A DNA stretch of 64,000 nt from a virus (IMGVR_UViG_3300026552_000002:1-64000); one strand, 5' to 3'. Counted from the stretch's first letter, positions 30,940 through 59,760 are shown. Numbers and translations: made by a program. Notes: generated by a model from the sequence alone, not told the origin.

Positions 30940-30950
30940 AAAACTACCTC

Positions 30951-31142: not shown

Positions 31143-31149
31143 CGCCTAC

Positions 31150-31611: not shown

Positions 31612-32096
31612 GCCTGCACCACCTCCAACACCTCGGTCTGCAGCCGGGCGACGTAATAGACCATCCGCATCGTGTTGGGCGTGCGCTCCGGCGGATACTC
31701 CAGCTCGAAGTCCTCGCCAATCTCCAGCATCTGGGAGACCTCGCCCGTGGTCGGGTCGGTGATGGCAACCGGCATGATGTCGGTGCGCAGCGCCTTCATG
31801 ACGGCGTCGATCACCAGGGGAAACTCCTGATCAACCACGGGATCGTGCGTCGTGTCGGACACCGTTTCATACGACAGGAACGCATCGACCTTCCAGCGGT
31901 ACTCCTGGAAGCCACCTCCGCGCGGGATGGTCTGTCGCCGACCCCGCATCCGGCCGCCCCAGATATAGCACTTGGGGCCGTCGAGGTTTTCCATCGCCGG
32001 TGGCTGAATCCACGCCACCAGGGCGGGAAGCTGCCCGGGAAGCGCGAGTCCGTCGAGGATCCCTTGCACGTGGTGCTGGACCGCGTTCAGCCCCAT
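31608..32096 (-). CDS. Tail terminator/head-completion-like protein
   Basis: 162 residues; ATG overlaps the previous stop (TGATG). It is alpha/beta, with an N-terminal helix (AVQHHVQGILDGLALPGQLPA) and beta strands (KVDAFLSYETVSDTTHDPVVDQEFPLVIDAVM) as in gpU-type tail terminators. The place in the operon, between connector and gp10-like genes, fits. Identity is by layout more than by motif. Confidence 0.65.
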   Translation of the reverse strand: MGLNAVQHHVQGILDGLALPGQLPALVAWIQPPAMENLDGPKCYIWGGRMRGRRQTIPRGGGFQEYRWKVDAFLSYETVSDTTHDPVVDQEFPLVIDAVMKALRTDIMPVAITDPTTGEVSQMLEIGEDFELEYPPERTPNTMRMVYYVARLQTEVLEVVQA

Positions 32097-33025
32097 CAGA
32101 TGACCCGACCGTAGGCTTCGAGGATCTTCTTAGCCTGCCGGCGCAGGTCCTCGGCGCCCTTGCCGCCGATGGTCTCCGAACCGGACACGCTCTGCATGAG
32201 CATCGCCGAGGCGCCGGAGTCCAGCACCTCCGATGAGGCCAGCAGGATCGTGGCCCAGGAGATGTCCTGCGGGATGGCCGAGCACACGATGCCGGCGGCG
32301 TGGCTGCTGGCCAGCGGAGTCGTCAGGGTGGCGGTGCCGGGCCCGACCGGGACCGAGGTACCCATGACGGTCGCCGGCGCGTCCGCGGTGACCGAGTTGA
32401 CGGTGACCATCTCGGTGTTGGCCCCGTCATACAGCCAACAGCGGGCGCCGGCCATGCCGGTGACGTCGTCCACGCGCAGGCTGGTCGCGCCGGCGGCGGC
32501 CGTGGCCAGCAGCGCCGCGTGCGGCCAGCCGTTGACATAGCTAACCTGCAGCCGGTGTCCGCGGCGACCGTTCCACCAGGACACGTAGCCCGGCGAGATG
32601 TCGATCATCGATGGTCCGTCGGCTGACGCACCGGGTGCGGTGGTGCCATACACGCTGCTGATCTGCGCACTTGGGCGCATCGCGGTACCGGGGATCGTGA
32701 TCCAGTTCGGGGGGATCACATCCGCCGGCGAATACTGGCCGCCGATGATGCTGATGATCGGCCAGCGGGAGGCGAGCAGGGTGACCACGCCGGTGTTGTC
32801 CACCGTCACGCGGTAGTCCGGGCCGACCTCTTCCTCCACGTCCAGCGTTGCCCGCAGCGGCTGGTTGCACAGCCGATCCACCTCGCCGGTGGCCCGCCAG
32901 CACACGTTGGTCTGCTCGGCGAGCTGCTCGGCCGCGGTCGCCTTGGGCCAGGGCACGACGGACCAGGGTAGGCCGGTGGGCGCGTTGACGATCATCTCCG
33001 GCGTGACGTAGGGGGTGGCCGTCAG
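32096..33025 (-). CDS. Head-tail connector protein
   Basis: Read from CTG 33025, one nucleotide past the previous stop with GGTGAGG upstream, giving LTATPYVTPEMIVNAPTG; ATG 32995 is the first canonical start. It has about 309 residues: a helical N-terminus (EQLAEQTNVCWRATGEVDRLCNQPL), a beta region and an Ig-like insertion (about 180-245, ATSLRVDDVTGMAGARCWLYDG). The head and tail of this protein match adaptor-type proteins that extend the portal. Confidence 0.68.
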   Translation of the reverse strand: MTATPYVTPEMIVNAPTGLPWSVVPWPKATAAEQLAEQTNVCWRATGEVDRLCNQPLRATLDVEEEVGPDYRVTVDNTGVVTLLASRWPIISIIGGQYSPADVIPPNWITIPGTAMRPSAQISSVYGTTAPGASADGPSMIDISPGYVSWWNGRRGHRLQVSYVNGWPHAALLATAAAGATSLRVDDVTGMAGARCWLYDGANTEMVTVNSVTADAPATVMGTSVPVGPGTATLTTPLASSHAAGIVCSAIPQDISWATILLASSEVLDSGASAMLMQSVSGSETIGGKGAEDLRRQAKKILEAYGRVI

Positions 33026-42447: not shown

Positions 42448-42609
42448 CTACGGCATCGCGTGGATCAGCGCGGGCAGCGCCATGAACAGCAACCCGATCG
42501 GCAGGAGGAAACCCGCCGGCACGTAGGCCGTGCGCACACCGGAGATGATCTCAGCCAGGGCCAACACCCCGAAGCAGATCACCGCGCACAGCAGGAGAGC
42601 AAAGTCCAT
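42448..42609 (-). CDS. Small two-helix membrane protein, 53 aa
   Basis: ATG 42609 shares an A with the terminase stop (TGATG). Two hydrophobic segments (about 3-22 and 28-50) joined by a short loop fill almost the whole protein. A holin-like hairpin here, far from the lysis genes, is unusual. Function unknown. Confidence 0.6.
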   Translation of the reverse strand: MDFALLLCAVICFGVLALAEIISGVRTAYVPAGFLLPIGLLFMALPALIHAMP

Positions 42610-44087
42610 CAGGAGTAGACCTCCAACCAGGGATTGAGCTCGGCGTCGTCGATGTAGTCGGCGGATTCGTCCGGGTCCAGGTAGACCGATCCCCAGTCGA
42701 GTTCGGCGTTGACGGTGCGCACGGGCACGGGTACGGCCACCCCCTCGGGGGTCTCGACCCACTCCTGCTCGGCCGGCGGCTCGCTGCGCGGCACCCGGGC
42801 CAGCTCGCGCGGCAGTCCGGCCACCGCCAGGCTTACGGCGTCGGGCAGGTCGTCGTGCAGGGATTCCAGCCGGGCGCCGATGCGCAGGCCGCCGGTCGGG
42901 GTGGGCTGCGCGGTGATGCCGCCGAGCTGCTTGAGCATTTCGGGATGGTTGGGCAGCACCAGTTGCCGTTCGGTCAGCAGGATGCGCACCCGGCCGTAGG
43001 CGTCCTCTTTGGACACCATCGTCGTCGGGGTGGAGCGCACGTTGACCAGTCCCCCGAGCCGGCGACCGAGCTCCTCGCTGGGAAACGCCCCGACGCCGGT
43101 CGTCTCCGTGCGCACGGACAGCGACCAGTTCTTGGCCAGGGCCTCGACCTCGGCGACCTGCAGGCCGTAGCGCCGGCGCGAGGTCTCCGCCCAGGGCACG
43201 ATGACGATCGAACGGCCGTTGTAGCCGTGGTCGTCGAGCAGTCCGGCCAAGGCCACGGCGTGCGCGTCCTGTCGTCTGCCCCAATCCAGGCCGCAGCTCA
43301 CGGGCATCCGTTCGCCGTGCCGGCGCATCTCGAAGTCCGCCACACAGGCCATGAGGTCGGTGTGGTCGAAATAGGCGTCGCCGGAGGCGATGAACTGCCC
43401 TTCGTATTCGGCCTGAAACCGCAACGGAGACATGGTCGCCCGCGCGGCCTCGATGACGGACTCGGAGATCCAGTGCGCGTCGGCGAGTTTCCAGTGGAAC
43501 GTGGCGATGTGGTCGTGGTGGGGATCGCGGCCTTGCATCGCGAAGGTGAAGAAACTGCCGGCGTCGCCCCAGGGGGATGAGGCCAGGATGATCCGGGCGT
43601 TCGGACGGGCCGCGGTGGTGGGCAGCGCCGCCGAGAGCAGCAGGTCTTCACTGACGAACGCGGCCTCGTCCACCAGCAGCAGGTCCACGCTCCAACCACG
43701 CACCTGGCGTTCGGAGGCGGGCACCGAGCGGATCTCGCTGCCGTTGGCCAGCACCACCCGGTGTTGGGTCTCGTCCACCACGGCGCCGGCCAGCAGCGCG
43801 TGGGCGCAGATGTCACGGATCATGCGCAGCAACCGGCCGGCAGCCTCCTCGCCGGCGGAGACCAGCAGCACCATCTGCCGGGGCCGGCGGAACGCCCAGT
43901 GGATGGCCTTGAGGCTCAAAGTTTGGGATTTGCCGCACTGCCTGGGCGAGACGATGCAGGTGTGGCGTTTGTCCAGCCGCATGGCATCGAGCTGCCAGGA
44001 CGTGCGCGGGTAGCCGAGAATCCGGCAGAACAGACCGAAGTCGTTGCGGGCCGCGCGCACGTCCTCGCGCTTAGGAATCGTCGGCAT
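42609..44087 (-). CDS. terL: Terminase large subunit
   Basis: 492 residues. ATPase: Walker A SPRQCGKS (47-54), Walker B DLLLVDEAAF (135-144), coupling motif ASSP (about 169). RNase H-like nuclease: GLDWGRRQDAHAV (about 265-277) and DDLPDAVSLA (about 416-425). It pumps DNA through the portal and cuts the genome ends. It overlaps the small subunit gene by 17 nt. It is the best single marker of phage type here. Confidence 0.96.
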   Translation of the reverse strand: MPTIPKREDVRAARNDFGLFCRILGYPRTSWQLDAMRLDKRHTCIVSPRQCGKSQTLSLKAIHWAFRRPRQMVLLVSAGEEAAGRLLRMIRDICAHALLAGAVVDETQHRVVLANGSEIRSVPASERQVRGWSVDLLLVDEAAFVSEDLLLSAALPTTAARPNARIILASSPWGDAGSFFTFAMQGRDPHHDHIATFHWKLADAHWISESVIEAARATMSPLRFQAEYEGQFIASGDAYFDHTDLMACVADFEMRRHGERMPVSCGLDWGRRQDAHAVALAGLLDDHGYNGRSIVIVPWAETSRRRYGLQVAEVEALAKNWSLSVRTETTGVGAFPSEELGRRLGGLVNVRSTPTTMVSKEDAYGRVRILLTERQLVLPNHPEMLKQLGGITAQPTPTGGLRIGARLESLHDDLPDAVSLAVAGLPRELARVPRSEPPAEQEWVETPEGVAVPVPVRTVNAELDWGSVYLDPDESADYIDDAELNPWLEVYS

Positions 44088-45351: not shown

Positions 45352-45520
45352 TGTGGACACTCCACAACGGACACTCTATAGGGGACGCCTCTACTGTGGA
45401 CGCTCCATACAGGACGCCTCTACAAGGGACGTCCACGGAGGACACGTCCACCGTGGACCCGAGCTCGGCAGTATGTCCGATATACCCTATTCCACTGTGG
45501 ACGCCTCCACTGTGGACATG
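45352..45520. repeat. Iteron array with DnaA-box-like units (putative replication origin)
   Basis: GGAC cores occur at 45355, 45369, 45383, 45398, 45412, 45427, 45440 and 45455, and again at 45499 and 45514. Steps are 13-15 bp, and the gap from 45455 to 45499 equals three steps. The unit is about ACTGTGGACGCCTCC. TGTGGAC is the reverse complement of the actinobacterial DnaA-box core GTCCACA. No ORF of quality covers it. The array could bind DnaA, the phage primase-helicase, or a repressor. Confidence 0.65.
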
Positions 45521-45676
45521 CCGGATATGTCCACTTCCGAGTCCACATATTGTGACTCCGGTCACAGTAGGGTAGTCCGTTCTATCCGAATCATCCCCAC
45601 CGATGTGCCCCAGGTCACACCCCCAGTTCTCGTTTCCGCAGTTCACGCCTGTTGCGCTTCACAACAGGGAGGCGTA

Positions 45677-45904
45677 GTGTCGCTGTTGTTCGGCCAACGG
45701 GGGCCGAGCGGGACGGCCGGAAGGGATCCGGACGGGCGAGCGAAAGGGACGCTCGCGAGCGGACCCGCACGACGCGGGAAGAGGGAAGGCAGCAGACACA
45801 AGACACAGACTCCGGACCCACACAAAGAACGTGCATCGCGTGGCGCTGGACCGAGTAAGGCGGAGCATCCTCCGCTCAAAGGTCCCTCGACAAATTCTCG
45901 CTAG
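45677..45904 (+). CDS. Possible small basic protein, 75 aa
   Basis: GTG 45677 follows GGGAGG at 4 nt. The product is very basic and hydrophilic (KGTLASGPARRGKREGSRHK) without a hydrophobic core. It is therefore either disordered or a fortuitous ORF in a purine-rich leader. The upstream in-frame extension to 45353 runs through the iterons and is not believed. Confidence 0.35.
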   Translation: MSLLFGQRGPSGTAGRDPDGRAKGTLASGPARRGKREGSRHKTQTPDPHKERASRGAGPSKAEHPPLKGPSTNSR

Positions 45905-46012
45905 GGGCAGGCACCGACCGGAAGCCAAAGCCTCGACGCGGGCGGACACGCGACACACTCGGTAGCCGCGCAGCAGCGGTCCGAGCGGCCCTAGGGGCAT
46001 CATATTTGCTGA

Positions 46013-46060
46013 TGATCAATCCTCTCTCACTTGGGTTGATCATGCACGGTCGGATGATCA
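46013..46060. promoter_or_regulatory. Three TGATCA sites upstream of the early operon
   Basis: Palindromes TGATCA at 46013, 46037 and 46055, followed by GATCAC and CGATCG-type sites up to 46106. They lie in the AT-richer 200-bp leader before the first early gene. An operator cluster for an early repressor is plausible but not shown. Confidence 0.4.
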
Positions 46061-46135
46061 CTTATCCACCCGTGCGTGGTCACACTCGCACGATCACTCA
46101 CGATCGCGCGGGATCCGAGCGAAAGGGAACGGATC

Positions 46136-46438
46136 ATGATTGTGGTCACGCTGAACAGCGCGCCGGTCGCTCGGTTCACCAACCGAGCTCGGATGCAAAC
46201 ATGGTTGTTGGCCAGCGGTCGAGTCACCACACGCGGCGGATTCAAAACACACACGTTCGCCAGCGAAAGCGACGCACCATGGCGACACCTCAACCGCGTC
46301 CCGCTAGACCCGACCGGCGCACCCACGCGCCGAACCTACGGACGCAACGTGTTAGCGCACACCAGCGAAGCAAACAAGCGCGCACGGACCAGTGAGCACC
46401 CGGTCGCGCGACGCGCTAAGGGTCGCTTGTGGGAGTGA
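46136..46438 (+). CDS. First early-region protein, 100 aa
   Basis: ATG 46136 after GAAAGGGAACGGATC, the same site style as the later early genes. The product is basic and Thr/Arg-rich (MIVVTLNSAPVARFTNRARM; TRRTYGRNVL). It may bind nucleic acid. Family not recognised. Confidence 0.6.
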   Translation: MIVVTLNSAPVARFTNRARMQTWLLASGRVTTRGGFKTHTFASESDAPWRHLNRVPLDPTGAPTRRTYGRNVLAHTSEANKRARTSEHPVARRAKGRLWE

Positions 46439-46522
46439 GCGAATGACCAGTGTGGCGAACGGATACACGCCGTTCACCGCGCTGGCCATTAGGCCAACTC
46501 CACCCGAGAGAAAGAACCGATC

Positions 46523-46717
46523 ATGGCGGAAGTCACCGATACCGAGATCATCACGATGCTTCAGACGGTTTTCGCTACGGAAGACGATTGGGACCTCTCC
46601 CGAGAGGCCAACGTTTCCGAGCGATACGTCTCCCAGCTCAACGGCAGACGACCCATAAAGCACGTCCGTAACTGCGGCTACCCGTCTGGCGGCGTGTGTC
46701 GCTACGTCACCCCGTGA
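46523..46717 (+). CDS. Small HTH-like early protein, 64 aa
   Basis: ATG 46523 behind a leader copy. The sequence TDTEIITMLQTVFATEDDWDLSREANVSERYVSQLNGRRPI looks like a short helix-turn-helix (an S-E-R-Y-V-S-Q-L recognition helix). A small DNA-binding regulator is plausible, for example of the early operon. The assignment is by pattern only. Confidence 0.55.
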   Translation: MAEVTDTEIITMLQTVFATEDDWDLSREANVSERYVSQLNGRRPIKHVRNCGYPSGGVCRYVTP

Positions 46718-46810
46718 CCAGCCTGGCGGACAGACTCATTACTCCGTCCGCCGTACTGGCTACTGAGCAACCAGCTAGCTGCTCTTCGACCCGAGAGACA
46801 GGACAAGATC

Positions 46811-47242
46811 ATGGCCGAGAAGGTCAACAGGCACGACGCAGACAACAGCAGAGACCCGTTGTTTCGCACCGCTGACCGTGTGCTGATCCGCGACGGACTG
46901 CGCGTGTGGGACTACGACCTCAAGCCTGGCTCGGTGGACTTCACCGGATCGTCACTGTTCGATTCGCCGTATTGGAACGGCTGGTTCAACGTCATCACCG
47001 ACGACGGTCAGCACAGTCTCATGAACGGTGAACGGCTGTGCACCAAGCACCCGACCACGGGTGAGGCACCGTCGCCAGCGCCGGACAAGCTCTGCGACTA
47101 CTGCGACCAGCCTGCCGAACGGATCAGCAAGGACAGCGGCGAGCCGCTGTGCAAGGCGGATGCGCGCGACCAGTACGAAAACTGGCGCTACGACACGACT
47201 GTGCTCACCCCGCACACGCTGAAGAAATACAGCCGAGCCTGA
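46811..47242 (+). CDS. Early protein with a zinc knuckle, 143 aa
   Basis: ATG 46811. The first two thirds resemble small DUF-type phage proteins (SLFDSPYWNGWFNVITDDGQ). The end has CTKH, CDYCDQPAERI and CKADARDQYE, giving a plausible zinc site. The leader is a divergent version of the two-hairpin family. It reads like a regulatory or takeover protein; no known domain. Confidence 0.6.
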   Translation: MAEKVNRHDADNSRDPLFRTADRVLIRDGLRVWDYDLKPGSVDFTGSSLFDSPYWNGWFNVITDDGQHSLMNGERLCTKHPTTGEAPSPAPDKLCDYCDQPAERISKDSGEPLCKADARDQYENWRYDTTVLTPHTLKKYSRA

Positions 47243-47319
47243 CCGCTTGTGTCGTGTCCGGACCGTCCGGACACGGCACTGGCCGCCAGGCCAATTCCAC
47301 CCGAGAGAAAGAGACGATC

Positions 47320-47637
47320 ATGGCATTCGAGAACGAGGAGCCCGCATCGCTGTCGATCTGCGAAGACTGCCTTCAGATCCTCGCCAATGGCGAGATCAAC
47401 GACGGCACGAACCGTGGCGAGAAGTGCGCAGCGGCCATGGCCGAGAAGTGGGGCGACATTCACATCACGCTCGGCACCCTGGAGCACAACGACGGGTGCA
47501 AGCGGGAGACCGACAGTGAGTGCGACTGCGAAGACCTGGGTTTTCGCACGTCGGACTGCGACGGTTGCGGCTCATCTTTCCATGGTGACCGTCACGCGGC
47601 GACCGCATGGATTCCGAAGACCTCCACCAACGCCTGA
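47320..47637 (+). CDS. Cysteine-rich early protein, 105 aa
   Basis: ATG 47320 behind a leader copy. CEDCLQILANGEINDG near the start and CDCEDLGFRTSDCDGCGSS near the end give at least ten cysteines, several in CxC/CxxC pairs. Such CEDC...NGE proteins occur in many actinomycete mobile elements. Probably binds one or two zincs. Function unknown. Confidence 0.62.
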   Translation: MAFENEEPASLSICEDCLQILANGEINDGTNRGEKCAAAMAEKWGDIHITLGTLEHNDGCKRETDSECDCEDLGFRTSDCDGCGSSFHGDRHAATAWIPKTSTNA

Positions 47638-47714
47638 CCGCTTGTGTCGTGTCCGGGCAACCGGAAACGGCACTGGCCGCCAGGCCAATTCCACCCGAGA
47701 GAAGGACAACGATC

Positions 47715-48095
47715 ATGAAAGAACTCAACGACCTCATGGAGTTCGATCACGTGATCCGAGTGCACACGGACGGCAGTATCACCGAACCATCCGGAGTGCA
47801 CGCACCGGAAATCATCGTGGACACGGACGATGACGGTCAGATTCTGAACGCGCACGAAAAGCAAATGATCCGAAACGTCCGCGCTCAGGGCTGGTCACTG
47901 CTGACCGGATACACCGGACAGCACGGCTACCGGGGACCAATCATGCACCCGTCGGAATTCATCGGCGGACGGCTCGAAAAGGACATCCGGACCACACCGG
48001 GTCTCTACGTCGCGGTCATCGTCACCACGCTGGACGCTGCTGACGACAGGGACGACGTCGCCGGATGGGCCGTTGCCCACCAAGAAACCACCTGA
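47715..48095 (+). CDS. Early protein, 126 aa
   Basis: ATG 47715 behind a leader copy. Acidic, mixed alpha/beta; EFDHVIRVHTDGSITEPSGVHAPEI and GLYVAVIVTTLDA are its most regular parts. No motif recognised. Confidence 0.58.
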   Translation: MKELNDLMEFDHVIRVHTDGSITEPSGVHAPEIIVDTDDDGQILNAHEKQMIRNVRAQGWSLLTGYTGQHGYRGPIMHPSEFIGGRLEKDIRTTPGLYVAVIVTTLDAADDRDDVAGWAVAHQETT

Positions 48096-48172
48096 CCGCT
48101 TGTGTCGTGTCCGGACAACCGGAGACGGCACTGGCCGCCAGGCCAATTCCACCCGAGAGACAGGACAAGATC

Positions 48173-48754
48173 ATGAGCGCATGGGTGACCGGTCACAACC
48201 TGACCGGATACCTACCGGAAAGCGACACGCACGCCTACTCCGAATGGAAAGACGCGCGTGACGTGCTGATCGCGAACATGCAGGAGTACGCGGACCGAGA
48301 TGACGAGGCCGCATACGACCACCTGTCCGCGACCGCTCGCCGCGAAGACTACCCAGACTTCGAGAACAGCGGGTACGGGGACGACGAGCCGTCGATGCGT
48401 GCACAGGTCGACGCAGTTCTTAAGGACGACGGACCACAGGAAGGCCAGAACTTCGGCGCGATCATCGAGGACAACGACGAGCGAAACATCACGTTCTGGC
48501 TGTGGTGGGAAGAAGACAGATGGCCAGATGACTGGCACTGGCAATGGTGTGCCAACGACCTCGACATCTCAACTCACTTCTACGCCGAGGACGACGCAGC
48601 CGAGGCGCGACTGTGGGTCGAGGACGGCACGCTAATCGTCGCATTGGAACGCCAGAACGACGGTTGGCACGTCAGCGGTTCGGACAGCTACCACTGGACC
48701 GAGGACGCGCGGACGTTCCGTAAGCCTACAGACTGGACCATGCCGAAAGCCTGA
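48173..48754 (+). CDS. Early protein, Trp-rich and acidic, 193 aa
   Basis: ATG 48173 behind a leader copy. Residues about 95-135 are Trp-rich (ITFWLWWEEDRWPDDWHWQW) and the whole is acidic. Acidic surface-mimic proteins are sometimes inhibitors of host nucleases, but there is no direct evidence here. Confidence 0.58.
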   Translation: MSAWVTGHNLTGYLPESDTHAYSEWKDARDVLIANMQEYADRDDEAAYDHLSATARREDYPDFENSGYGDDEPSMRAQVDAVLKDDGPQEGQNFGAIIEDNDERNITFWLWWEEDRWPDDWHWQWCANDLDISTHFYAEDDAAEARLWVEDGTLIVALERQNDGWHVSGSDSYHWTEDARTFRKPTDWTMPKA

Positions 48755-48831
48755 CCGCTTGTGTCGTGTCCGGGCAACCGGAGACGGCACTGGCCGCCAA
48801 GCCAATTCCACCCGAGAGAAGGACAACGATC

Positions 48832-49188
48832 ATGCACAAATACGTACCGCGCCGGCAATCCAAACGCTGGCGGAACGGGGACTGCCCAGACGGGGTGCTG
48901 GCAATCTACGACGCTGGCCCGGAGACCTTCGACCGGTACACCGTGTTCTACGCCGAACCGGTCACCGGGACCACGTACGCGAACATGTGGCTCAGTTACC
49001 GAGGCATGTCCAAGCACCCGACAAGTCCACAAGGATTCGGCTGCGCCGGCGAGATGGAGGCGCACAAGGTCGCCGCGTATCGGTATCGGGTCAGGCACCA
49101 GGCGTGCCGCTGGACCGACCTCCCGGACGAGGTGCGCGAACTCGTCAAGCGCGACCTGGCCGACCGCGAGGAAGCGAAGCAAACCTGA
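48832..49188 (+). CDS. Early protein, 118 aa
   Basis: ATG 48832 behind a leader copy. VLAIYDAGPETFDRYTVFYAEP, NMWLSYRGMSKHPTSPQGFG and the helical end (DEVRELVKRDLADREEAKQT) match small actinomycete proteins of unknown role that occur in phages and plasmids. Basic N-terminus. Confidence 0.6.
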   Translation: MHKYVPRRQSKRWRNGDCPDGVLAIYDAGPETFDRYTVFYAEPVTGTTYANMWLSYRGMSKHPTSPQGFGCAGEMEAHKVAAYRYRVRHQACRWTDLPDEVRELVKRDLADREEAKQT

Positions 49189-49266
49189 CCGCTTGTGTCG
49201 TGTCCGGACAACCGGATGCGGCACTGGCCGCCAAGCCAATTCCACCCGAGAGACAGGACAACGATC

Positions 49267-49671
49267 ATGAAGGACGAGCAGCTCACCCAGGTCCTGGACG
49301 GAGTCGCCACGGTCGTCAATTCCGGACCGCAAACCGGTTGGATCGAAGGCCGGGTCACCGGCCACCAGCACCCCAACAACCCCAACGCGCATCTGTGGGG
49401 CGACTGGGCGGACGACACGTCCAGCGAGTGGCGGTTCAACAACCGCAAGCCGCAAGAGCGGAAGTGCGCCTACGGCTGCACGCAGTTCCGCGCATGGACG
49501 GGACCGTTCGCTGAAGACAGCGTCCCGCACCTGCGAACGGCGCTGAAGCACCTCCGTCAAGCCCTCCGGATCGAGAAGTCGGACGACCAGTGGGGGCTGG
49601 CGCTGCCGATCCGCAAGATCCGCGATGACCTGGAAGAACTGATCGCGCGAATCGACAACCTGGAGGTCTGA
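49267..49671 (+). CDS. Early protein with C-terminal helical pair, 134 aa
   Basis: ATG 49267 behind a leader copy. The first 80 residues contain WIEGRVTGHQHPNNPNAHLWGD and CAYGC. The last 45 residues (LKHLRQALRIEKSDDQWGLALPIRKIRDDLEELIARIDN) match the whole of the small protein at 51810-51977. That suggests a mobile helical module. Confidence 0.6.
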   Translation: MKDEQLTQVLDGVATVVNSGPQTGWIEGRVTGHQHPNNPNAHLWGDWADDTSSEWRFNNRKPQERKCAYGCTQFRAWTGPFAEDSVPHLRTALKHLRQALRIEKSDDQWGLALPIRKIRDDLEELIARIDNLEV

Positions 49672-49759
49672 TCCCTGACCGCCAGCGTGGTGGACGGACG
49701 AGCTCCGTTCGCCGCGCCGGCCGCCAGGCCGAATCCACCCGAGAGACAGGACAACGATC

Positions 49760-50119
49760 ATGACGAGCGACTACGCCTGGATCGTCGACAGCACCCGCAC
49801 GCCCAACGAGGACGACACGGGAACCGTCGAGGACACCGAGTACAGCCGCAACGGCACCATGGGGCCGCGCACCGCACCGGCCGACCTGCTCGCCCGGCTG
49901 AAGGCCGGCGAGGGCCGGAAGTGGCGGACACTGGTTGACGTCGACTACGCGGGACACCCCGAGGAGCCTCGCGTAATCCACATCGGCCGGTACCTGGACC
50001 GAGGTGAGGACAGCGACGCCGAAGCGGAGTTCGGTCCGCTGGACGACCTCTCCCAGCCGGACTCCGGATGCGTCGACATCCAGTACCAGAACGACCAGGG
50101 CAAGTGGGAAACGCTCTGA
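49760..50119 (+). CDS. Early protein, 119 aa
   Basis: ATG 49760 behind a leader copy. Acidic alpha/beta product with DYAWIVDSTRTPNEDDTG and SGCVDIQYQNDQGKWETL; no motif recognised. Leader copies from here to 50615 share a GCCGCGCCGG/CGGCCG-type stem that differs from the earlier GTGTCGTGTCC type. Confidence 0.55.
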   Translation: MTSDYAWIVDSTRTPNEDDTGTVEDTEYSRNGTMGPRTAPADLLARLKAGEGRKWRTLVDVDYAGHPEEPRVIHIGRYLDRGEDSDAEAEFGPLDDLSQPDSGCVDIQYQNDQGKWETL

Positions 50120-50197
50120 CCGCCAGCGTGGTGGACGGACGAGAGCCGTTCGCCGCGCCGGCCGCCAGGCCGAATCCACCCGAGAGGAGAAACAATC

Positions 50198-50542
50198 ATG
50201 CGTCGTTGCAGCCCTGTTCACGCCACGGCGGAAATCGTGACGGTGCGGAACGACAACGACATCCGCATCGGCACGGTGACCAAGGTCGAACCTTACGGGT
50301 CACCGACTCCGCAGTACCTGACGCAGGCGCACGACTGGGACGGAGAGCACCCCGACCCGGCGGATCGGTACGACCCGATCACCGTGGGTGTGTTCGACGA
50401 CCCGGACATGGCATTTGGTGAGATCGAGCGCCGAGCACGCAAGGAACAGGCGCCGGAAACGTTCTGCCCCGGGCATGAAAGTCTCGACGGCGCCCACATG
50501 GGTGAGTCCGTCTACTGCGACGGGTCATGCGTCAAGGGCTGA
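50198..50542 (+). CDS. Early protein with C-terminal Cys/His site, 114 aa
   Basis: ATG 50198 behind a leader copy. Beta-rich first half; the end has CPGHESLDGAHMGESVYCDGSC (about 89-110), a probable zinc site. No domain name assigned. Confidence 0.56.
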   Translation: MRRCSPVHATAEIVTVRNDNDIRIGTVTKVEPYGSPTPQYLTQAHDWDGEHPDPADRYDPITVGVFDDPDMAFGEIERRARKEQAPETFCPGHESLDGAHMGESVYCDGSCVKG

Positions 50543-50615
50543 CCGCCAGCGTGGTGGGCGGACGAGTTCCGTTCACTGCGCCGGCCGCCAGGCCGAATCC
50601 GAGAGGAGAACGATC

Positions 50616-50783
50616 ATGACGCTGAGAGCACTGCTTGACGAGCTTCAGTACCTCGTCAAGCAGAACCCACGTAACGCCGACCGCACCGTCATCGACGTGC
50701 AGTCCGGCTACGAGCTGTCCTCGGTCAACGTCGAATCGGACGACGAGGGTGACTGGGTGCTGCTGGAGTTCGCCAGAGACTGA
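50616..50783 (+). CDS. Short early protein, 55 aa
   Basis: ATG 50616 behind a leader copy. MTLRALLDELQYLVKQNPRNADRTVIDV starts with a helix, then short strands with VNVESDDEGDWVLLEF. This resembles other short phage proteins with an L-x-x-L...DxxV layout. Function unknown. Confidence 0.55.
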   Translation: MTLRALLDELQYLVKQNPRNADRTVIDVQSGYELSSVNVESDDEGDWVLLEFARD

Positions 50784-50880
50784 CCCTGACCTGACCACCA
50801 GCATGGCACCCAGTGGTGTCCGACACCCTGGGTACCGTGCCGGTCGCCAGGACCGATACCACCCGAGAGGAGACACGATC

Positions 50881-51354
50881 ATGGACATGACCGAGCTCAA
50901 GAACCTGTCCCTATACGAGCTGGACAACATCGCTGGACTGAAGGTGGGCAGCGACGCGGACACGCCCAAGGGCAAGCAGATCCTGGAGGGTCTGCGGGAC
51001 GCGATCGTGGAGGCAAGCGACTACGACCGGTGGGACGTACCACGGGGGCGTGCGGAGGTGATCCACGAGCTGGTGGACAGCCTCGTCCCGATCTACACCA
51101 CGGACCGCGTCAAGGAGTTCGCGATCATCGCGGAGTGCTGGCACCTCGACCTGGAGGGCTTCAACGCCTACGCCGGCGCGTTCGACTTCGGCCAGCTCGA
51201 CGTCTATCACATGGACAGCGAGACCACGGCGGTCGTGGAGATCGGCCGCGCGCTGTACCTGGCCTACACCCAGGCCATCCAGAACGTGCTGAAGTGGGTC
51301 GAGGAAAACCAGCCGGAGGACGAAGACGAGGACGAGGACGAGGACGAGGGCTGA
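50881..51354 (+). CDS. Early protein with acidic tail, 157 aa
   Basis: ATG 50881 behind a leader copy. All-helical, with LSLYELDNIAGLKVG, RAEVIHELVDSLVP and IGRALYLAYTQAIQNVLKWV, ending in an E-D run (about 140-157) encoded by GAC/GAG repeats. The acidic tail could mimic DNA. No family known to me. Confidence 0.57.
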   Translation: MDMTELKNLSLYELDNIAGLKVGSDADTPKGKQILEGLRDAIVEASDYDRWDVPRGRAEVIHELVDSLVPIYTTDRVKEFAIIAECWHLDLEGFNAYAGAFDFGQLDVYHMDSETTAVVEIGRALYLAYTQAIQNVLKWVEENQPEDEDEDEDEDEG

Positions 51355-51440
51355 CCGTCAGCGTGGTGCACGGACCTGTGCCGTTCACCGCGCCGGCCGT
51401 CAGACCAACTGTAGGGCCACCCGAGAGGAGAAGATCCACC

Positions 51441-51683
51441 ATGGCAAGCGAGGGTGCCGAGTTCGACGCTGTGATCGAGAGCGTGGACCGGCTCAACAAC
51501 AGCGCCAACGGCAATCCGCGATACCGCGTACATCTGCGCGGTGGCGACGTGCTTCAGACGAAGCCGGACGCGGCGATCAACTATGGGATCTCGAACAGCG
51601 ACGTCCACAACGTACCTGTGCGGATCACGACGGACGGCAAGAACCAGATCACCTACGTCACGAAAGAAGGCGAGCACATCTAG
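51441..51683 (+). CDS. Early protein, 80 aa
   Basis: ATG 51441 behind a leader copy. Beta-rich: EFDAVIESVDRLNNSANGNPRYRVHL, then GGDVLQTKPDAAINYG and QITYVTKEG. A small OB-like fold would fit the length and strand spacing, but this is a guess. Nucleic-acid binding possible. Confidence 0.57.
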   Translation: MASEGAEFDAVIESVDRLNNSANGNPRYRVHLRGGDVLQTKPDAAINYGISNSDVHNVPVRITTDGKNQITYVTKEGEHI

Positions 51684-51809
51684 TCTCTGACCGCCGGCGT
51701 GGCGCCCGAGGTCACTCGGGTACCGCGCCGGCCGCCAGGCCGATTCCACCGGAAACAAGGAGACACGATCATGGGTCAGCCGATTCCACCCGAGATGGGG
51801 AGAACGATC

Positions 51810-51977
51810 ATGGGTCAGGACACCCGTGTGCTGCTGGGTAACGCCCTCGCCATGGTCCGCCAAGCACGCAAGATCGAAACGGAAAACAGCGATGAGTGGG
51901 GTCTCGCCGGTTCCATTAATGACATCGAAAGAAAACTGCACACCCTGACCGAGAAGATGGACAACGGCGAAATCTAA
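51810..51977 (+). CDS. Small helical early protein, 55 aa
   Basis: Starts at ATG 51810 or, in frame, ATG 51771. The stretch 51741-51815 holds two copies of the ribosome-binding site, start codon and MGQ codons. The protein (LLGNALAMVRQARKIETENSDEWGLAGSINDIERKLHTL) is a paralogue of the C-terminal module of the protein at 49267-49671. Confidence 0.55.
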   Translation: MGQDTRVLLGNALAMVRQARKIETENSDEWGLAGSINDIERKLHTLTEKMDNGEI

Positions 51978-52000
51978 TTCCACCCGAGAGGAGAACGATC

Positions 52001-52384
52001 GTGGACGGGGAACCCTCGATCCAGGTTTGGAAACACCCCGAGATGGACATCCTGCGTGTCCAACTCGACGGAGACGAGATCCGCGAGGTGAATTTCGCGC
52101 GGTTCGAATATGGCGACCCTGTGAACGACGTCCCGGACGACTGGATGCTGCTCGCTCCGGTCGCCACATCCCGCGAAAACACCGAGAACGAGAATGGGGA
52201 CGAACCCCAACATGGGGCACGCGCGGCCTGCCGAGTGTGCGATCTGGACATCGAATTTGGGTACGGAGAGTGGATCGACCGCGGGGGTAACAAGCGATGC
52301 GCGACCGGCGGGGGTGCCAAGTACGACGTGGACGGCAACCCCATCCCTCTGCCCGACACACCGCATGTCCCACTCAAGGACTGA
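52001..52384 (+). CDS. Early protein with zinc finger, 127 aa
   Basis: GTG 52001, preceded only by the 3' part of the leader (CCACCCGAGAGGAGAACGATC). Contains CRVCDLDIEFGYGEWIDRGG (about 80-99) and a further Cys in KRCATGGG. The N-terminal half is beta-rich (IQVWKHPEMDILRVQLDGDE). Function unknown. Confidence 0.57.
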   Translation: MDGEPSIQVWKHPEMDILRVQLDGDEIREVNFARFEYGDPVNDVPDDWMLLAPVATSRENTENENGDEPQHGARAACRVCDLDIEFGYGEWIDRGGNKRCATGGGAKYDVDGNPIPLPDTPHVPLKD

Positions 52385-52467
52385 CCGCCAGCGTGGCGGA
52401 TGGGGTACCAGCTCCGTCCACCGCGCCGGCCGCCAGGCCGATTCCACCCGAGAGAAAGACAACGATC

Positions 52468-53574
52468 ATGACTACAACCGAACCGCGTGCGCCGTCGGAC
52501 ATCGCGACGGCACTCGGTGACCTGTTCGCTGAGCAGGGTGTTCGGGCGCGCGTCGTGGGTGCGAACACGGGTGCGGCCATCAGCCGGTACAACATCGCGT
52601 TGTCGCCGGGTGAGCGGCCGGAGAGCGTGCTCAAGCTGCTGCTAACCATCCAGTACACGCTGGGCACGCCCCAGGTCCGGATTCAGGTGCCGGTGCCGGG
52701 TCATCCGCTGATGGGGATCGAGGTGCCGAACGCCGAGCGGGTGACCGTGAAGCTCACGGACATTGACATGCGGGGCCAGCCGCGGCTGAGTGTGCCGTTG
52801 GGGCCGAACATCGATGGTGGTCCGCAGGTGGCCAACCTGGCGGACATGCCGCACCTGTTTCTAGCGGGTCAGACCGGCAGCGGTAAGAGCAACTGGTTGA
52901 CGGCGGCGCTGTGCACGCTGTTCATGCGCAACCTGCCGGAAGACCTGCGGGCGCTGTTGATCGACCCGAAGATGGTGGAGTTCACGCCGTACCGAGGGCT
53001 GCCCCATCTGCTGCGTCCGCCGGTAACCGACCCGAACGAGGCGGTGCGGGCGCTGAAGCAGCTCTGTGAGGAGATGGATCGTCGCTACGAACGCATGTGC
53101 GCCGCTGGCGTGCGTGACCTCGACTCCTACAACGCTCTGCCGGGTGTGGCGAGGATGGCGCGTATCGCGGCGGTGGTGGACGAGATCGCCGATCTGATGG
53201 CCGTCGCCGGTAAGGCCGTGACGAACTACGTGCAGCGTGCCGGACAGAAGGCGCGAGCCAGCGGTATCCACCTGGTGCTGGCCACGCAGCACCCGTCGCG
53301 GAAGATCCTGCCGGGCGAGATCAAGACAAATGTGCCGGCGAGGTTGGCGTTCGCGTTGCCCCAGGCGGTGGATTCCCGGATGGCTCTCGACCGTCCCGGG
53401 GCGGAAAGTCTGCTCGGTGCGGGTGATGGGTTGTACTGCGCACCGAACGGCTCAATGGTGCGGTTCCAGGCACCGTACGTGACGGATGCCGAGCGGGATT
53501 ACTTCATCGAGCGCGTACTGAAGCGGGATGCCCCGCAGGTCGCTCAGCGGCCACCATTGCGCGTGGTCAGTTAG
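52468..53574 (+). CDS. FtsK/SpoIIIE-type DNA translocase without membrane or gamma domains
   Basis: 368 residues, ATG 52468 behind a leader copy. The alpha domain (about 1-115; VRARVVGANTGAAISRYNIALSPG and PVPGHPLMGIEVPN) and the RecA-like beta domain (Walker A AGQTGSGKSN near 133, LRALLIDPKM, VVDEIADLM near 230, HLVLATQHPSRK) are complete. The N-terminal membrane helices and the gamma DNA-sequence reader of FtsK are absent, so this is a soluble motor. Possible roles are DNA transfer or segregation of a non-integrated form, or processing of replicating DNA. It ends the early operon. Confidence 0.85.
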   Translation: MTTTEPRAPSDIATALGDLFAEQGVRARVVGANTGAAISRYNIALSPGERPESVLKLLLTIQYTLGTPQVRIQVPVPGHPLMGIEVPNAERVTVKLTDIDMRGQPRLSVPLGPNIDGGPQVANLADMPHLFLAGQTGSGKSNWLTAALCTLFMRNLPEDLRALLIDPKMVEFTPYRGLPHLLRPPVTDPNEAVRALKQLCEEMDRRYERMCAAGVRDLDSYNALPGVARMARIAAVVDEIADLMAVAGKAVTNYVQRAGQKARASGIHLVLATQHPSRKILPGEIKTNVPARLAFALPQAVDSRMALDRPGAESLLGAGDGLYCAPNGSMVRFQAPYVTDAERDYFIERVLKRDAPQVAQRPPLRVVS

Positions 53575-53587
53575 GGAAGGGGGAGCC

Positions 53588-53830
53588 ATGGAGATCAGCA
53601 AGGAGGAGTTGGGGCAGCTCATCGTCGGCTATGCCGAGATCGGTGACATGTACGAAGAGCTGCTGGGCAAGCGAGTCACGCTGTCGCTCATCCGGCGCTT
53701 GATGAATCATCCCCGAGCTCCCGGACGCATTCCGGGCCTGGCCACGGCGGTGTTCCTCCGCAGCGAGGCACGAGAATGGATTCTCACCGACCGGCCGGCA
53801 GGCAAGCACCTGGGACCGCGCAAGGGGTAG
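53588..53830 (+). CDS. Excisionase-like/winged-helix DNA-binding protein, 80 aa
   Basis: ATG 53588 after GGGAGCC. The sequence EIGDMYEELLGKRVTLSLIRRLM, then PGRIPGLATAVFLRSEAREWI has the MerR/AlpA-like pattern seen in small excisionases. It could be the recombination directionality factor for the serine integrase, but its distance of more than 50 kb is unusual if so. Last gene of the early run. Confidence 0.55.
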   Translation: MEISKEELGQLIVGYAEIGDMYEELLGKRVTLSLIRRLMNHPRAPGRIPGLATAVFLRSEAREWILTDRPAGKHLGPRKG

Positions 53831-53835
53831 TCGAA

Positions 53836-53902
53836 TGGCCCCGGAGCGGGCGGAGCGTGCCTCGGATGTATCGCTCGACGCCTGCTCTACGGGGCCACTC
53901 GT
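53836..53902. terminator. Long imperfect hairpin between convergent transcripts
   Basis: TGGCCCCG (53836-53843) pairs with CGGGGCCA (53895-53902), with further pairing inward (GAGCGGGCG against CGCCTGCTC). It separates the early operon from the minus-strand replication operon. Confidence 0.45.
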
Positions 53903-53945
53903 CCCACCATGGACAACCTGAGCGTGACAGTCGTGTTCGCGCTGC

Positions 53946-54800
53946 TCAAGGGACTTTCGAGGGATGACCTCGACGTTGGGTGCGGGTGGGCTCTTGAGCG
54001 TGTTGGATCGCTCGGTTGAGCACGTCTCCGACGCGGTAGCGAGGCGTACGGCGTGGATCGCGGGGGTGGGGTTCGTAGGTGGCCAGTCGATCGCGAGCGG
54101 CCCACTGGCGGATGGTGGCGGGTTTGACGGGTAGACCCAGCGCGGTGAGTCCACGGCCGATGGCGGTCGCGGTGGCCAGTTCGTCGGCGAGAACGTCGCG
54201 GAGCTGTGCCTGGCGGGCGGCGACGTCGATGTCCTGCCCGCAGGTGCAGCGGAGCTGGGCGCGGCCGGCGCGGGCGTACAGGACGGTGTCGCAGCCGGGG
54301 CAGCGGCCGAGGCAGATGGTGTCCTCGGGGAGGTCGATGGCGGCCCAGACGCGGCCGACCACGGACAGGATGCTGGTGTGCATGTCGCCGGCGGCGGGGT
54401 GGGCGGCGAGCAGGGTGGGGTAGCGACTCATCCACGCGGCGGCGCCGGCGACCGTGCGCCAGGCGGGGCGTAGGTGGGTGTTCACGCGGGCGAGTTCGCC
54501 TGCCCAGAGCGCGACGGTGCTGGCCATGACGGTCCAGGTTTCGGCCGCGCGGGGGTCGTGCGGCAGGGGTTGGGCGTGCCCGGAGCCGAACAGTTTGATC
54601 TTTTCGTACGCTCCGACGGGGCTGGGTCGCCGGGTCATGGTCAGCGCGAGGTCGGCGGCGAGACCGTGTTCGCGCCGGCCGTCCACGTCGGTGACCGCGA
54701 GCGAGCGCAGTGCGGCTACCAGCTCGTCGCGTGAGCCGCCGCAGAGCATGGTCTCGGTGGGTCGGTCGCAGTCGGCGGCGGCGCAGACCTGGTGGGTCAT
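53946..54800 (-). CDS. Zinc-ribbon/HTH phage protein of the replication region, 284 aa
   Basis: From ATG 54800 after GGGGAGA; the ORF opens at 55034. N-terminus ACAAADCDRPTETMLCGG with paired Cys, a helical middle, a zinc ribbon CPGCDTVLYARAGRAQLRC.CG (about 190-212) and an HTH-like end (GLPVKPATIRQWAARDRL with YRVGDVLNRA). The last part resembles DNA-binding domains that read a binding motif. It lies last in the replication operon, just past the polymerase fusion. Confidence 0.6.
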   Translation of the reverse strand: MTHQVCAAADCDRPTETMLCGGSRDELVAALRSLAVTDVDGRREHGLAADLALTMTRRPSPVGAYEKIKLFGSGHAQPLPHDPRAAETWTVMASTVALWAGELARVNTHLRPAWRTVAGAAAWMSRYPTLLAAHPAAGDMHTSILSVVGRVWAAIDLPEDTICLGRCPGCDTVLYARAGRAQLRCTCGQDIDVAARQAQLRDVLADELATATAIGRGLTALGLPVKPATIRQWAARDRLATYEPHPRDPRRTPRYRVGDVLNRAIQHAQEPTRTQRRGHPSKVP

Positions 54801-54811
54801 GGGCTCTCCCC

Positions 54812-57800
54812 TCAACTCGTGTAGCAGTCGGCCCAGTTGCGACCGGAGCCGGAGACGTCGGCGTGCACGGTGATCGGACGGCTGGCGCCGGGTGGGGCCC
54901 ACTGGAAGGTCATGGCCTTGAGCACTTCGGCGGCGACCTCGTCCACGTCGTTCTCGGGGACTTCCAGCACGACCTCGTCGTGGACCTGAATGCGGATCAT
55001 GCGTGCGATGTCGTCGGGCAGCCGCAGTAGGCATTCCATCATCAGATCGCGGGCGGTGCCCTGGCCCATCAGCGCGGGTGCCTGGGTGTGGGCGCGGGCG
55101 GGGTTGCAGCGCATGAGCCGGCCGAAACCGTTGTCGAGCACACCGTGGCTGCGGGCCAGGTCGCGGACGTGCTCGCGCCAGGCGACTAGGCCGGGGAAGC
55201 GTTCGCGCATGGTGTGGTCGAACTCGGCGGCCACGTGCTCGGGTACGCCGGCGTTGCGAGCGAGTCCGTCCAGACCCATGCCGTAGTTCCAGCCGTGTCC
55301 GATGGCTTTGGCGTCCTGCCGGCGGCTGGCATCACCCCAGACCATGCGCGCGACCTCGGTGTGGGAGTCCACGCCGGGTTCGAACAGGCTCAGATAGGCC
55401 GGGTCCTGGCAGTGGGCGGCAACCGCGCGAGCGTCGATCTGGGACAGGTCGGCGGCGAGCAGGAGGTTGCCGTCGTCGGCGCGGAAGACGGCACGCTCGG
55501 CCACGCGACCGCCGCGCTTCCCGAACACGGTCAGTCCGGGCTTGGTCACCGACCACCGGCCGGATGCCTGGTACATGGTGATCTGGGGGTGCACGCGACC
55601 GTCGGCGTGGGTGTGTTCCAGGGCGGTGGCGTACACGGTGCGGGCGCCGGCCATGTCGGCGACCGCGTCGCAGAGCTCGGCCACCTCGCCGCCGTATTTG
55701 CGGGCCAGCTCGCGCATCCCGTCGCCACCGAAGCTGTAGGCGCCCTTGTCGGTGCGGGGCAGGTCGGCGTCGTCCACGCCGAGGTCGGCGAAGGCGGCCA
55801 CGAGTGCAGCTTTGCCTTCCTTGGTGGCGTGGGCGGACTCGACGGGTTTGCCAGCGGCGTTGACCGTGGGCAGGCCGTAGCGCTGGGCGAGCCGGCGGGT
55901 GAGGTCGGCCTTGCGGTTGCGGGTGCGCCAGTAGCGGTCCTGCAGCAGGGGCATGTCCACGGCCAGACCGGCATCGGACATGATCGCGGCGATGGCGGCC
56001 ACACGGTGTTCGCGCCAGACGTAGTCGCGCAGGTGTGGGGCTTGGGCGTCGGCGAGTGCCCGGGTGGCGTCCACGTCGCCGCGCAGGTAGGCGCGGTACC
56101 GGGGGTCGTCGACCGGGATGGCGTCATAGCCGCCGTGGTGTTTGGCGAGTTCGTCGAGTCGGTCCGTCTTGCCGGGTAGTCCGCGGCGCTCGGCGATGGC
56201 GTTCAGGCGGTAGCGCGCGGCGGCGCGGGCCACGGCGTTCGGCCGTTCGTCGACCTCCGGTGGATCGAGTACGGCTTCGGTGACCATGGTGTCCAGAACG
56301 CGCCGACAGCGGGTCAGTTCCAACAGGTCGATCGAGCCGGGTGCGACGGCGTCCAGCACGGGCAGGTCGAAGCTGATCAGGTTGTGTCCAACCAGCAGCT
56401 CGGCGTTGCCGGCGGCGTGGGCCACGGCGGGGATGTCGGTGGTGTCGTAGTACGTGCCGTCCGCGTTGAGACCAGCCAGGCGGACGAACGCCCGGGGGTC
56501 GGTGTCGTAGCGATCCTTCTTGGCATCGCCGGTTTCCAGGTCCAGCACAATCGCTACCGGCGCGCGAGGTGGCGCGGTATCCAGCACGGCACTGTCGACT
56601 TCCAGCGCCTGGGCCTTGATCATTTCTCGTCGGGGAGCATCCGGCTCTGATGACTCTGTGTGACCATTGGAGTTGATCAGTTGTTGATCATGGGTTCCAG
56701 AGGTTCCAAAGTTCGCCGTTCCCCATAGGGAAAAGCCCTGTTGATCTCGTGATGCAAAATCTGTGGGGAACGACAACTTTGGAACCTCTGGAACTTCGCA
56801 GGTCAACAGATCAACTTTAGTTCTCGCTGAACCGACCATCTCCCGGTTATCCACAACCTGTGGATAACTCCCCTCGTCATGATCATCTCGGAAGCGCAGC
56901 CCCATCCAGGCCCAATAAGCGGATGGAATGTCACTCGTGGTGACTGCTCCCGGCCGAGCGGGACGCTGCGACAACCCCTCCTGTCGCTTGATCTTGCGGC
57001 GTTTGACTCCGCGTCCGGTGATCTCCGAGTGGCCCTCCAGTCGACTGGTCAGCAACTGCTTGGACCAGGGCCGGTGTCCCTGTCCGGTGAGGTACTCGTT
57101 GATGTCGTCGAGCAGCTCGGACGACATGACGTGCCGGTTCGCGTCGAAGATCATCCGCTCGTCGAGCCAACCCCAGATCAGGTCCGCACCGGCCCGCCAC
57201 TCCCGGGTGTCGGCCAGCACACGCTCGGGATGGGTGGGCATGACCTTGCCGGCCGCGTACCACTTCCGGGCACCGTCGACCAACCACGCCAACACGGCTT
57301 CGTGCTGGCCGGTCTCGCCAAGCCGGATGCGCTCCCGCAGGCCCGGATCGCCACGGCGGTCGTGCTCGCGCACCAGCTCGGCCTCCCGCCCGCGGAACCG
57401 ATAGGGAAACCGCAGCGCGGCCAGTCGGCGCCAGGTGCCGTGGTCGACCTCCTGGACCACGGGCAGGTAGTTCGTCGACAAGAACAGCGAGTGCGTCGCG
57501 GCGAAGGTGATCGGATCGCGGCGCATCCGCCGGGCGGTGATGGTGGGCGTGCCGATCAGGGCCTTGAGCTTGACCACCTCCAGCCGCCGCGCCTCCGGAG
57601 TTTCCTCCAGCAGCGCCAGCCGCGCCCCGTGGAAATCCATCAACTCGGTAGGTACCGAGTCCGACGACGCCAGCAGCGCGCGGTGCGAGACATCCAGGAA
57701 GAACCCGCCCAGTGCGCCCCGCAGACCCGTCATGACCGTAGTTTTGCCGTTCTCACCCCCGCCGACCTGGACCAACAACGTGTCGTCCGGGGTCATGTGG

Positions 57801-59242: not shown

Positions 59243-59760
59243 AAAGCCCTCTCCCTCTGCCCACGGGCGTGTTTGCTCAACGGGTCCGGCAGGCCGGCGT
59301 CGTGCACCGCGGTGTAAAGCGCGTGGCGGGTGGCGTCCCCGGCGTGCCGGCCGACCTTCAGCGCGTGGTCCAGCAGCCCGGCGGCCTTCAGGCGCTCGTT
59401 GTTCGCCCAGCGCTTGACCGTGGACGCCGACCGGCAGGCCCAGCCCACGCGCTCGTCGTTCTCCGGGCTGCGCTGGACGTAGAACAGCTCGGCGATGAGC
59501 GCGCGGGTGACCCGACCTGCTGCGGGCGTGCGCGAGCGCGCGGCGCGGGGCCCGTTCACCCACCGCTCGACCGCCAGGATCGCCGGCAGCGGCGCCCACG
59601 CATCAAGCCACATGCCCACCACTTCCCGCGCCGTCTCGGGTCCACACTGGACGGGCCGCATGTGTATCTCGCCGAGCGGCGTCGTGCCGAGGTGCGAAAG
59701 GGCGCACAGGCCGACGGTCTCGCCGGGGTCGACGCCGATGACCAGAAGCGGTTGGCTCAT
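59239..59760 (-). CDS. RuvC-like Holliday junction resolvase
   Basis: 173 residues from ATG 59760 after GGAGG. It has the RuvC/RNase H-like pattern: VIGVDPGETVGL (first acidic residue in D-P-G), LAVERWVNG (second) and DATRHALYTAVHD (third, near the C-terminus). It would resolve recombination intermediates made in phage replication. It overlaps the fusion gene by 4 nt and the next small gene by 4 nt. Confidence 0.82.
   Translation of the reverse strand: MSQPLLVIGVDPGETVGLCALSHLGTTPLGEIHMRPVQCGPETAREVVGMWLDAWAPLPAILAVERWVNGPRAARSRTPAAGRVTRALIAELFYVQRSPENDERVGWACRSASTVKRWANNERLKAAGLLDHALKVGRHAGDATRHALYTAVHDAGLPDPLSKHARGQRERAL

What the first reader, a model, noticed from the sequence alone, without database searches (positions are those of the whole stretch)
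46443..52467. A 13-copy family of two-hairpin leaders drives the early genes
Thirteen intergenic leaders share the same architecture: a long stem of variable sequence, a mini-hairpin with GCCA-like loop, then CCACCCGAGAG and a purine run before ATG. Stem halves co-vary or use G-U pairs, so RNA shape appears selected. Two sub-types exist (the GTGTCGTGTCC type and the GCG-TGG type). Comparable start-associated and extended start-associated sequences are known in cluster K mycobacteriophages, but this form differs in sequence and has two stems. Possible roles are mRNA stabilisation and processing, uncoupling from upstream translation, control by a phage regulator, or a recombination site for gene shuffling.
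Basis: partly seen in the sequence, partly recalled or inferred. Interest (0 to 1): 0.82.

Follow-up and report, generated by a model that had tools for sequence, protein, structure and literature searches.

The report
RNA hairpins between phage early genes
A virus of an unidentified, probably actinobacterial host places the same folded RNA element, starting at or just after one gene's stop signal and ending at the next gene's start, between its small early genes 14 times; it probably keeps the genes of one long messenger separate, and it differs from the start-site repeats known in mycobacterial viruses.

Summary
There are 14 full copies (46443-52470), each running from a TGA to the next start codon. 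They are intercistronic modules: in 10 of 14 the upstream gene's own stop codon is the first base of the module. The long stem (P2) shows compensatory changes (covariation 0.419, shuffles 0.203±0.022; slid partners at most 0.115). Its wobble pairs favour the sense strand (28 against 5), so the selected object is mRNA, not a DNA operator. The mini-hairpin (P3) follows P2 with no spacer in any copy. 'Drives the early genes' is not supported: no sigma-70-like promoter, and the first gene of the operon has only the ribosome-binding part. A related phage (L058) has its own diverged array at the same genomic place on unrelated genes, and Streptomyces elements carry one stop-P2-P3-SD leader. SAS/ESAS membership fails. 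Best mechanism (moderate confidence): an insulator and stabiliser between cistrons of one early transcript. Exchange between copies (mosaic SD parts, gene ends swapped at the boundary) looks like a consequence. A second, mutually exclusive fold that pairs the stop codon is suggestive only. New variant of a known kind.

The parts
46115..46138 (+). hairpin-less SD module of the first gene of the operon (CCGAGCGAAAGGGAACGGATCATG; gene 46136-46438)
   Evidence: sequence; ORF read
46443..46525 (+). leader c01 (P3 loop ATTA)
   Evidence: A1; CM 81.7 bits
46715..46813 (+). leader c02, most diverged; P3 degenerate with an insertion
   Evidence: 49 bits
47240..47322 (+). leader c03, type A
47635..47717 (+). 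leader c04, type A
48093..48175 (+). leader c05, type A
48752..48834 (+). leader c06, type A
49186..49269 (+). leader c07, type A hairpin with an SD part identical to that of c08
49676..49762 (+). leader c08, type B
50117..50200 (+). leader c09, type B
50540..50618 (+). leader c10, type B (lacks CCAC before CCGAGAG)
50792..50883 (+). leader c11, long apical stem; G-C to A-U change in both the P3 stem and the alternative stem
51352..51443 (+). leader c12 (P3 weakened)
51688..51773 (+). leader c13
51774..51812 (+). tandem duplication of the SD part and start (second copy)
   Evidence: (23 bits)
51978..52003 (+). hairpin-less SD module directly after the TAA of the preceding gene, before the GTG start at 52001
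   Evidence: (20.7 bits over 51946-52003)
52382..52470 (+). leader c14, upstream of the FtsK-like translocase gene
52468..53574 (+). FtsK/SpoIIIE-like DNA translocase, last gene with a leader
   Evidence: Pfam PF01580 2.6e-45

Best explanation
The repeat is an intercistronic RNA element of one polycistronic early transcript. Shown here: it spans stop codon to start codon; it can form a 13-bp-or-longer hairpin (P2) and, in most copies, an abutting 5-bp hairpin (P3); the pairing, not the sequence, is conserved; and the sense-strand RNA is what is selected. Inferred: because the base of P2 lies 9 nt from the U of the upstream UGA, about where the leading edge of a terminating ribosome would sit, and because the SD part stays outside both hairpins, the element insulates neighbouring cistrons. 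It would stop post-termination ribosomes from drifting on, stop 3'-5' exonucleases at the end of each cistron (and possibly be cut by host RNases), and leave each gene its own SD. Copies exchange sequence by recombination, which homogenises neighbours and lets gene cassettes be swapped at the stop-codon edge. That the operon is one transcript is itself inferred from gene layout.
For: Covariation of P2. Sense fold more stable than antisense fold in 12 of 14 copies, wobble 28 against 5. P2-P3 spacing 0 in 14 of 14, and stop-to-P2 distance fixed (9 nt in most) while P3-to-ATG varies 20-33 nt. Starts without a hairpin are the first gene of the operon and one immediately abutting gene. In L058 too, the two hairpin-less starts are the first gene of the array and one preceded by a possible promoter (TTGCAT-18 nt-TAGACT, read by eye), as expected if the element is needed only between cistrons. 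A diverged array with the same plan and place, on genes with no detectable similarity to the window's, exists in L058. One stop-P2-P3-SD leader is kept in nine Streptomyces-type elements. No SigA-like promoter and no U-tract terminator at the leaders.
Against: No expression data. Stability, insulation and processing are not separated by sequence. In the fold with 25 nt of upstream context P3 is often replaced by an alternative pairing, so P3 may not form constitutively. Covariation within L058 and within the Streptomyces set is not significant on its own.
Confidence: 0.45

Rival explanations
1. Each hairpin is a partial transcription terminator, and the operon is read only by RNA polymerase carrying a phage or host antitermination factor, as in operons with many internal terminators (conAn of pLS20).
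For: Arrays of hairpins between genes are the layout described for conAn operons (PMC8955417). The low-GC phage contig L024 has eight intergenic stems with strong covariation, a fixed loop GTCACAG and a T tract.
Against: The window leaders have no U tract; the terminator scan finds no excess and none at the leaders (5 found, 5.9 expected).
Confidence: 0.2
2. The modules are binding sites on mRNA for a phage or host RNA-binding protein (a post-transcriptional regulon of the early genes).
For: A few positions are invariant within otherwise variable stems (U.G at the fourth pair in 14 of 14), and P3 has a fixed GC-rich stem with a short loop, also in the Streptomyces elements.
Against: Most of P2 is free to change sequence; no candidate regulator was identified.
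Confidence: 0.15
3. The modules are primarily recombination joints for gene-cassette shuffling, selected because they bring in new genes.
For: SD parts and hairpin parts have discordant relationships (c07 hairpin type A, SD identical to c08; c05 SD identical to c02). Neighbouring copies are more alike than distant ones (rho -0.33, p 0.006). Cassette genes are almost all unrelated. In Streptomyces elements at least five different gene ends abut the same leader.
Against: Recombination between repeats needs no covarying RNA stems and no sense-strand wobble bias. No integron-like R boxes. The upstream genes of the Streptomyces set are partly homologous to each other.
Confidence: 0.12
4. The inverted repeats are DNA sites: promoters or operators as proposed for cluster K ESAS.
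For: Position upstream of early genes, many copies, inverted repeats.
Against: Arms have no fixed half-site consensus; compensatory changes; wobble bias; no TTGAC in any leader and no TANNNT in 13 of 14.
Confidence: 0.05

Closest known systems
SAS/ESAS of cluster K mycobacteriophages (Pope 2011, PMC3203893; Adephagia, PMC11373665)
   Same: Many copies upstream of early or non-structural genes in one genome; short form next to the start codon, long form with an inverted repeat; copies with and without the extension; genome-specific sequences.
   Different: SAS is GGGATAGGAGCCC (absent here beyond chance). ESAS arms have a fixed consensus with TTGACA, and departures break pairing (36 broken cells against 4 compensated in Adephagia). 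ESAS is read as a SigA-like promoter. Here the arms covary, there is no promoter, a second hairpin is present, and the stop codon is part of the unit.
Intergenic repeats of Gordonia cluster DJ phages (Pherobrine, PMC9753669)
   Same: Repeats in a run of small genes, intergenic, upstream of ATG starts.
   Different: Read here they share TATAAT before the SD and no common hairpin, that is, promoter-like.
Early stem-loop cassettes of T4-type phages (PeSL; recalled from memory, paper not held in the library)
   Same: Intergenic hairpins between small hypervariable early genes, thought to help gene shuffling.
   Different: PeSL is recalled to contain an early promoter; none was found here.
Operons with many internal terminators and processive antitermination (conAn, PMC8955417)
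   Same: Hairpins between genes along one long operon.
   Different: Those are intrinsic terminators; the window elements have no U tract. The L024 array resembles that kind more.
26-bp start-associated repeat of phage Mordin (PMC4611695)
   Same: Repeat upstream of the starts of 8 small hypothetical genes.
   Different: A single short consensus described without hairpins.

Membership tests
Cluster K SAS | 13-bp GGGATAGGAGCCC a few nt before the start codon | tested here: not met
   1 match with 2 mismatches in 64 kb, 2.15 expected; not in the leaders
Cluster K ESAS | 17-bp inverted repeats with a fixed consensus whose departures do not support RNA pairing | tested here: not met
   window arms covary; Adephagia control shows the opposite
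Cluster K ESAS | SigA-like -35 and -10 inside the repeat | tested here: not met
   no TTGAC in any leader, TANNNT in 1 of 14; 0 promoter-like sites in the region
Intrinsic terminator array | GC-rich hairpin followed by a U tract | tested here: not met
   no terminator-like site at the leaders
T4-type PeSL cassette | early promoter plus stem-loop between genes | tested here: not met
   stem-loop present, sigma-70-like promoter absent; other promoter types not covered by the scan
Integron attC-like cassette site | R boxes RYYYAAC and GTTRRRY flanking the inverted repeat | tested here: not met
   absent in all 14 leaders
Any RNA family in Rfam 15 | covariance-model match | tested here: not met
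   no match up to E = 1 in 45500-54500; only tRNAs in the related loci searched
Host RNase processing site (T7-like intercistronic sites) | cleavage in the stem and mRNA ends at the element | not testable with these tools
   needs RNA ends

The most novel reading that the evidence does not exclude
The module is a bistable switch read by the terminating ribosome: the flank holding the stop codon can pair with the 5' arm and loop of P3, extending P2 and excluding P3. A ribosome finishing the upstream gene would open this extension and let P3 form, so each cistron would report its translation to the stretch between it and the next. In L058 the stop codon sits in such an outer stem in nearly all copies.
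Probability: 0.15. Interest if true: 0.75.

Novelty: new variant of a known kind. Interest (0 to 1): 0.55.

Why it matters
Start-associated repeats of phage early genes have lacked a settled mechanism since 2011, and the best-known ones look like DNA sites. Here is a family of the same general layout where covariation and strand bias say that the RNA fold is what is kept, with many natural variants in one genome, a diverged array in a related phage, and a single-copy version in Streptomyces elements. This makes the questions (insulation, stability, ribosome sensing, cassette exchange) testable with a two-gene reporter.

Tried and rejected
No match of the early region in 50,697 phage records: megablast of the 40-60 kb stretch found nothing, and distant blastn found, among the hits listed, only matches in coding or low-complexity stretches. 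A leader pattern in 2.9 million viral contigs gave 14 single hits: near-identical pairs (L010/L012, L009/L020) and others in different contexts; L010, L011 and L012 share the SD-like string but not the hairpins. A stricter pattern in 84,980 genomes gave none. A covariance-model hit in the Actinoplanes genome (45 bits) lies antisense inside a sugar-transporter permease gene and was rejected; it shows that the model's E-values alone are not proof, so L058 is accepted for its repeated, stop-to-start anatomy, not for its score. A generic two-hairpin scan has too many chance hits to be used (38 against 30 in the reversed control). Terminase and a cassette protein found no relatives in viral contigs. 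Pol relatives L059, L065, L077 and L078 show no leader array in the stretch read. The closing stem UGA:UCA suggested by single folds is not supported in context.

Full report
What it is in. The window is 64,000 bases of a 67,796-base virus record. It encodes a terminase (42609-44087, minus strand), a fused primase/DNA polymerase A (54812-59599, minus), an integrase (71-1498, minus) and an FtsK-like translocase. Sequence relatives of the polymerase lie in Actinoplanes, Nocardioides and Streptomyces genomes, so an actinobacterial temperate phage is the likely source; the host itself was not identified. The early operon runs from about 46136 to 53830 on the plus strand, convergent with the polymerase.

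The observation. Fourteen modules lie between consecutive small genes. In 10 of 14 the first three bases of the module are the in-frame stop codon of the upstream gene; in the other four the upstream gene stops 4-8 nt earlier and the module's TGA is still present. P2 starts 9 nt into the module in most copies, P3 follows with no spacer in all 14, and the distance from P3 to the start codon varies from 20 to 33 nt. The 5' edge is therefore held more tightly than the 3' edge. The proteins served by the leaders are almost all unrelated to one another (g07 and g13 are 38% identical over 55 aa).

Is the fold real? Single-sequence folds beat shuffles (z -1.9 to -4.4). On the alignment 94% of cells pair, 11 of 18 pairs have compensated changes, and the covariation score is 0.419 against 0.203±0.022 in shuffles and at most 0.115 when partners are slid, a control that keeps relatedness. 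Some of this reflects one split between types A and B, but the apical stems of c01, c02, c11, c12, c13 and c14 also differ from both and still largely pair. Wobble pairs separate RNA from DNA: folding the reverse complement gives weaker stems (-16.1 against -22.0 kcal/mol, sense stronger in 12 of 14 copies, p 0.0017; copies are not independent) and 5 wobble pairs instead of 28, of which 14 come from one invariant U.G pair. The object under selection is most likely the sense RNA.

Relatives. No annotated phage record was found to share the array and Rfam has nothing. Through the polymerase a related contig, L058, was found. At the same place, convergent with its polymerase, it has six modules plus hairpin-less SD starts: TGAGCCGCCATGGTGCGAGGCCTC...GAGGTCTCGCGCCACGG..GCTCA..ACCGAGAGAGGACACCACACCATG. 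Five of six begin at a TGA that ends the upstream gene, and an outer stem pairs that stop (UGAGC with GCUCA). None of the L058 proteins tested shows significant similarity to the window's cassette proteins (two of the eight start coordinates were misread there, so six were compared). The hairpin-less starts in L058 are the first gene of the array and one preceded by a possible promoter (TTGCAT, 18 nt, TAGACT), read by eye from the sequence. Covariation within L058's six copies alone is not significant. Nine Streptomyces-type elements carry one stop-P2-P3-SD leader with P3 TGGCCGTTAGGCCA, close to TGGCCATTAGGCCA of c01. Pairing is kept, but covariation alone is not significant there. Whether these are homologous to the window family or convergent is open.

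Recombination. Hairpin and SD parts disagree about who is closest to whom (c07 has a type A hairpin and an SD identical to that of c08; c05 has the SD of c02). Similarity falls with distance along the operon (rho -0.33, permutation p 0.006). In the Streptomyces elements at least five different gene ends sit against the same leader, although the upstream genes are partly homologous. Exchange through the modules is therefore likely, but it does not need covarying RNA.

A possible second fold. With upstream context, P3 is often out-competed by pairing of the stop-codon flank with the P3 5' arm and loop. The alternative pairs are kept in all copies at 7-9 of 12 positions, with changes on both sides in c01, c02 and c11. 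Shuffling the flanks among copies reaches this in 5.7% of trials, and in 1.1% when duplicates are removed. This is suggestive, no more.

Comparison with known systems. SAS/ESAS of cluster K is the nearest description. Its authors found that the ESAS arms do not generally support RNA pairing, and later work reads ESAS as containing a SigA-like promoter. Applied to Adephagia, a similar count gives 36 cells broken by departures and 4 compensated (this site list was collected loosely and includes a few poor sites). The window elements fail all three tested SAS/ESAS features. Cluster DJ repeats are promoter-like. An unrelated low-GC contig, L024, shows an eight-copy array with covariation stronger still (0.876 against 0.247±0.054), a conserved loop and T tracts. 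It is more like a series of terminators, and shows that arrays of intercistronic hairpins have more than one form.

Mechanism and confidence. That the element is an RNA structure between cistrons is well supported (about 0.85). That its main job is insulation and stabilisation is an inference (0.45). Termination with antitermination, a protein-binding regulon and a recombination joint are the live rivals.

Noticed in passing
L024 396-6476 (+), IMGVR_UViG_3300028591_000183: Eight-copy array in a low-GC FtsK-bearing contig: TAA, stem of 11-14 pairs with different sequence in each copy, loop GTCACAG, T tract, CCTGTTAA, GGAGG, ATG; the strongest covariation seen (0.876).
   Followed up: partly
window 46013-46106: Non-coding stretch before the operon with TGATCA three times and CGATCA/CGATCG twice, plus CTTATCCACC like a DnaA box; possible operator or origin.
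   Followed up: no
window 51734-51812: About 39-nt tandem duplication of the SD part with start codon (ATGGGTCAG twice), giving two possible starts for the gene ending at 51977.
   Followed up: no
L071 9365-10362, L073 1570 and 4115, L072 11288 (+): Other polymerase-related contigs have intergenic hairpins after stop codons with a common GGGGTTGCA-like motif; L071 has several alike.
   Followed up: no
L043 (Pherobrine) 23582-32108: Cluster DJ intergenic repeats share TATAAT followed by GAGACCCCTACGAAAGG, i.e. look like repeated promoters.
   Followed up: partly
window 54812-59599 (-): D5-type primase/helicase and DNA polymerase A domains in one 1595-aa frame; among relatives the frame length varies widely.
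   Followed up: no
G002:C289:7499-7578 (L099 1501-1580, -): A 45-bit match to the leader model antisense inside a sugar-transporter permease gene of Actinoplanes; taken as chance, but unexpectedly high.
   Followed up: partly
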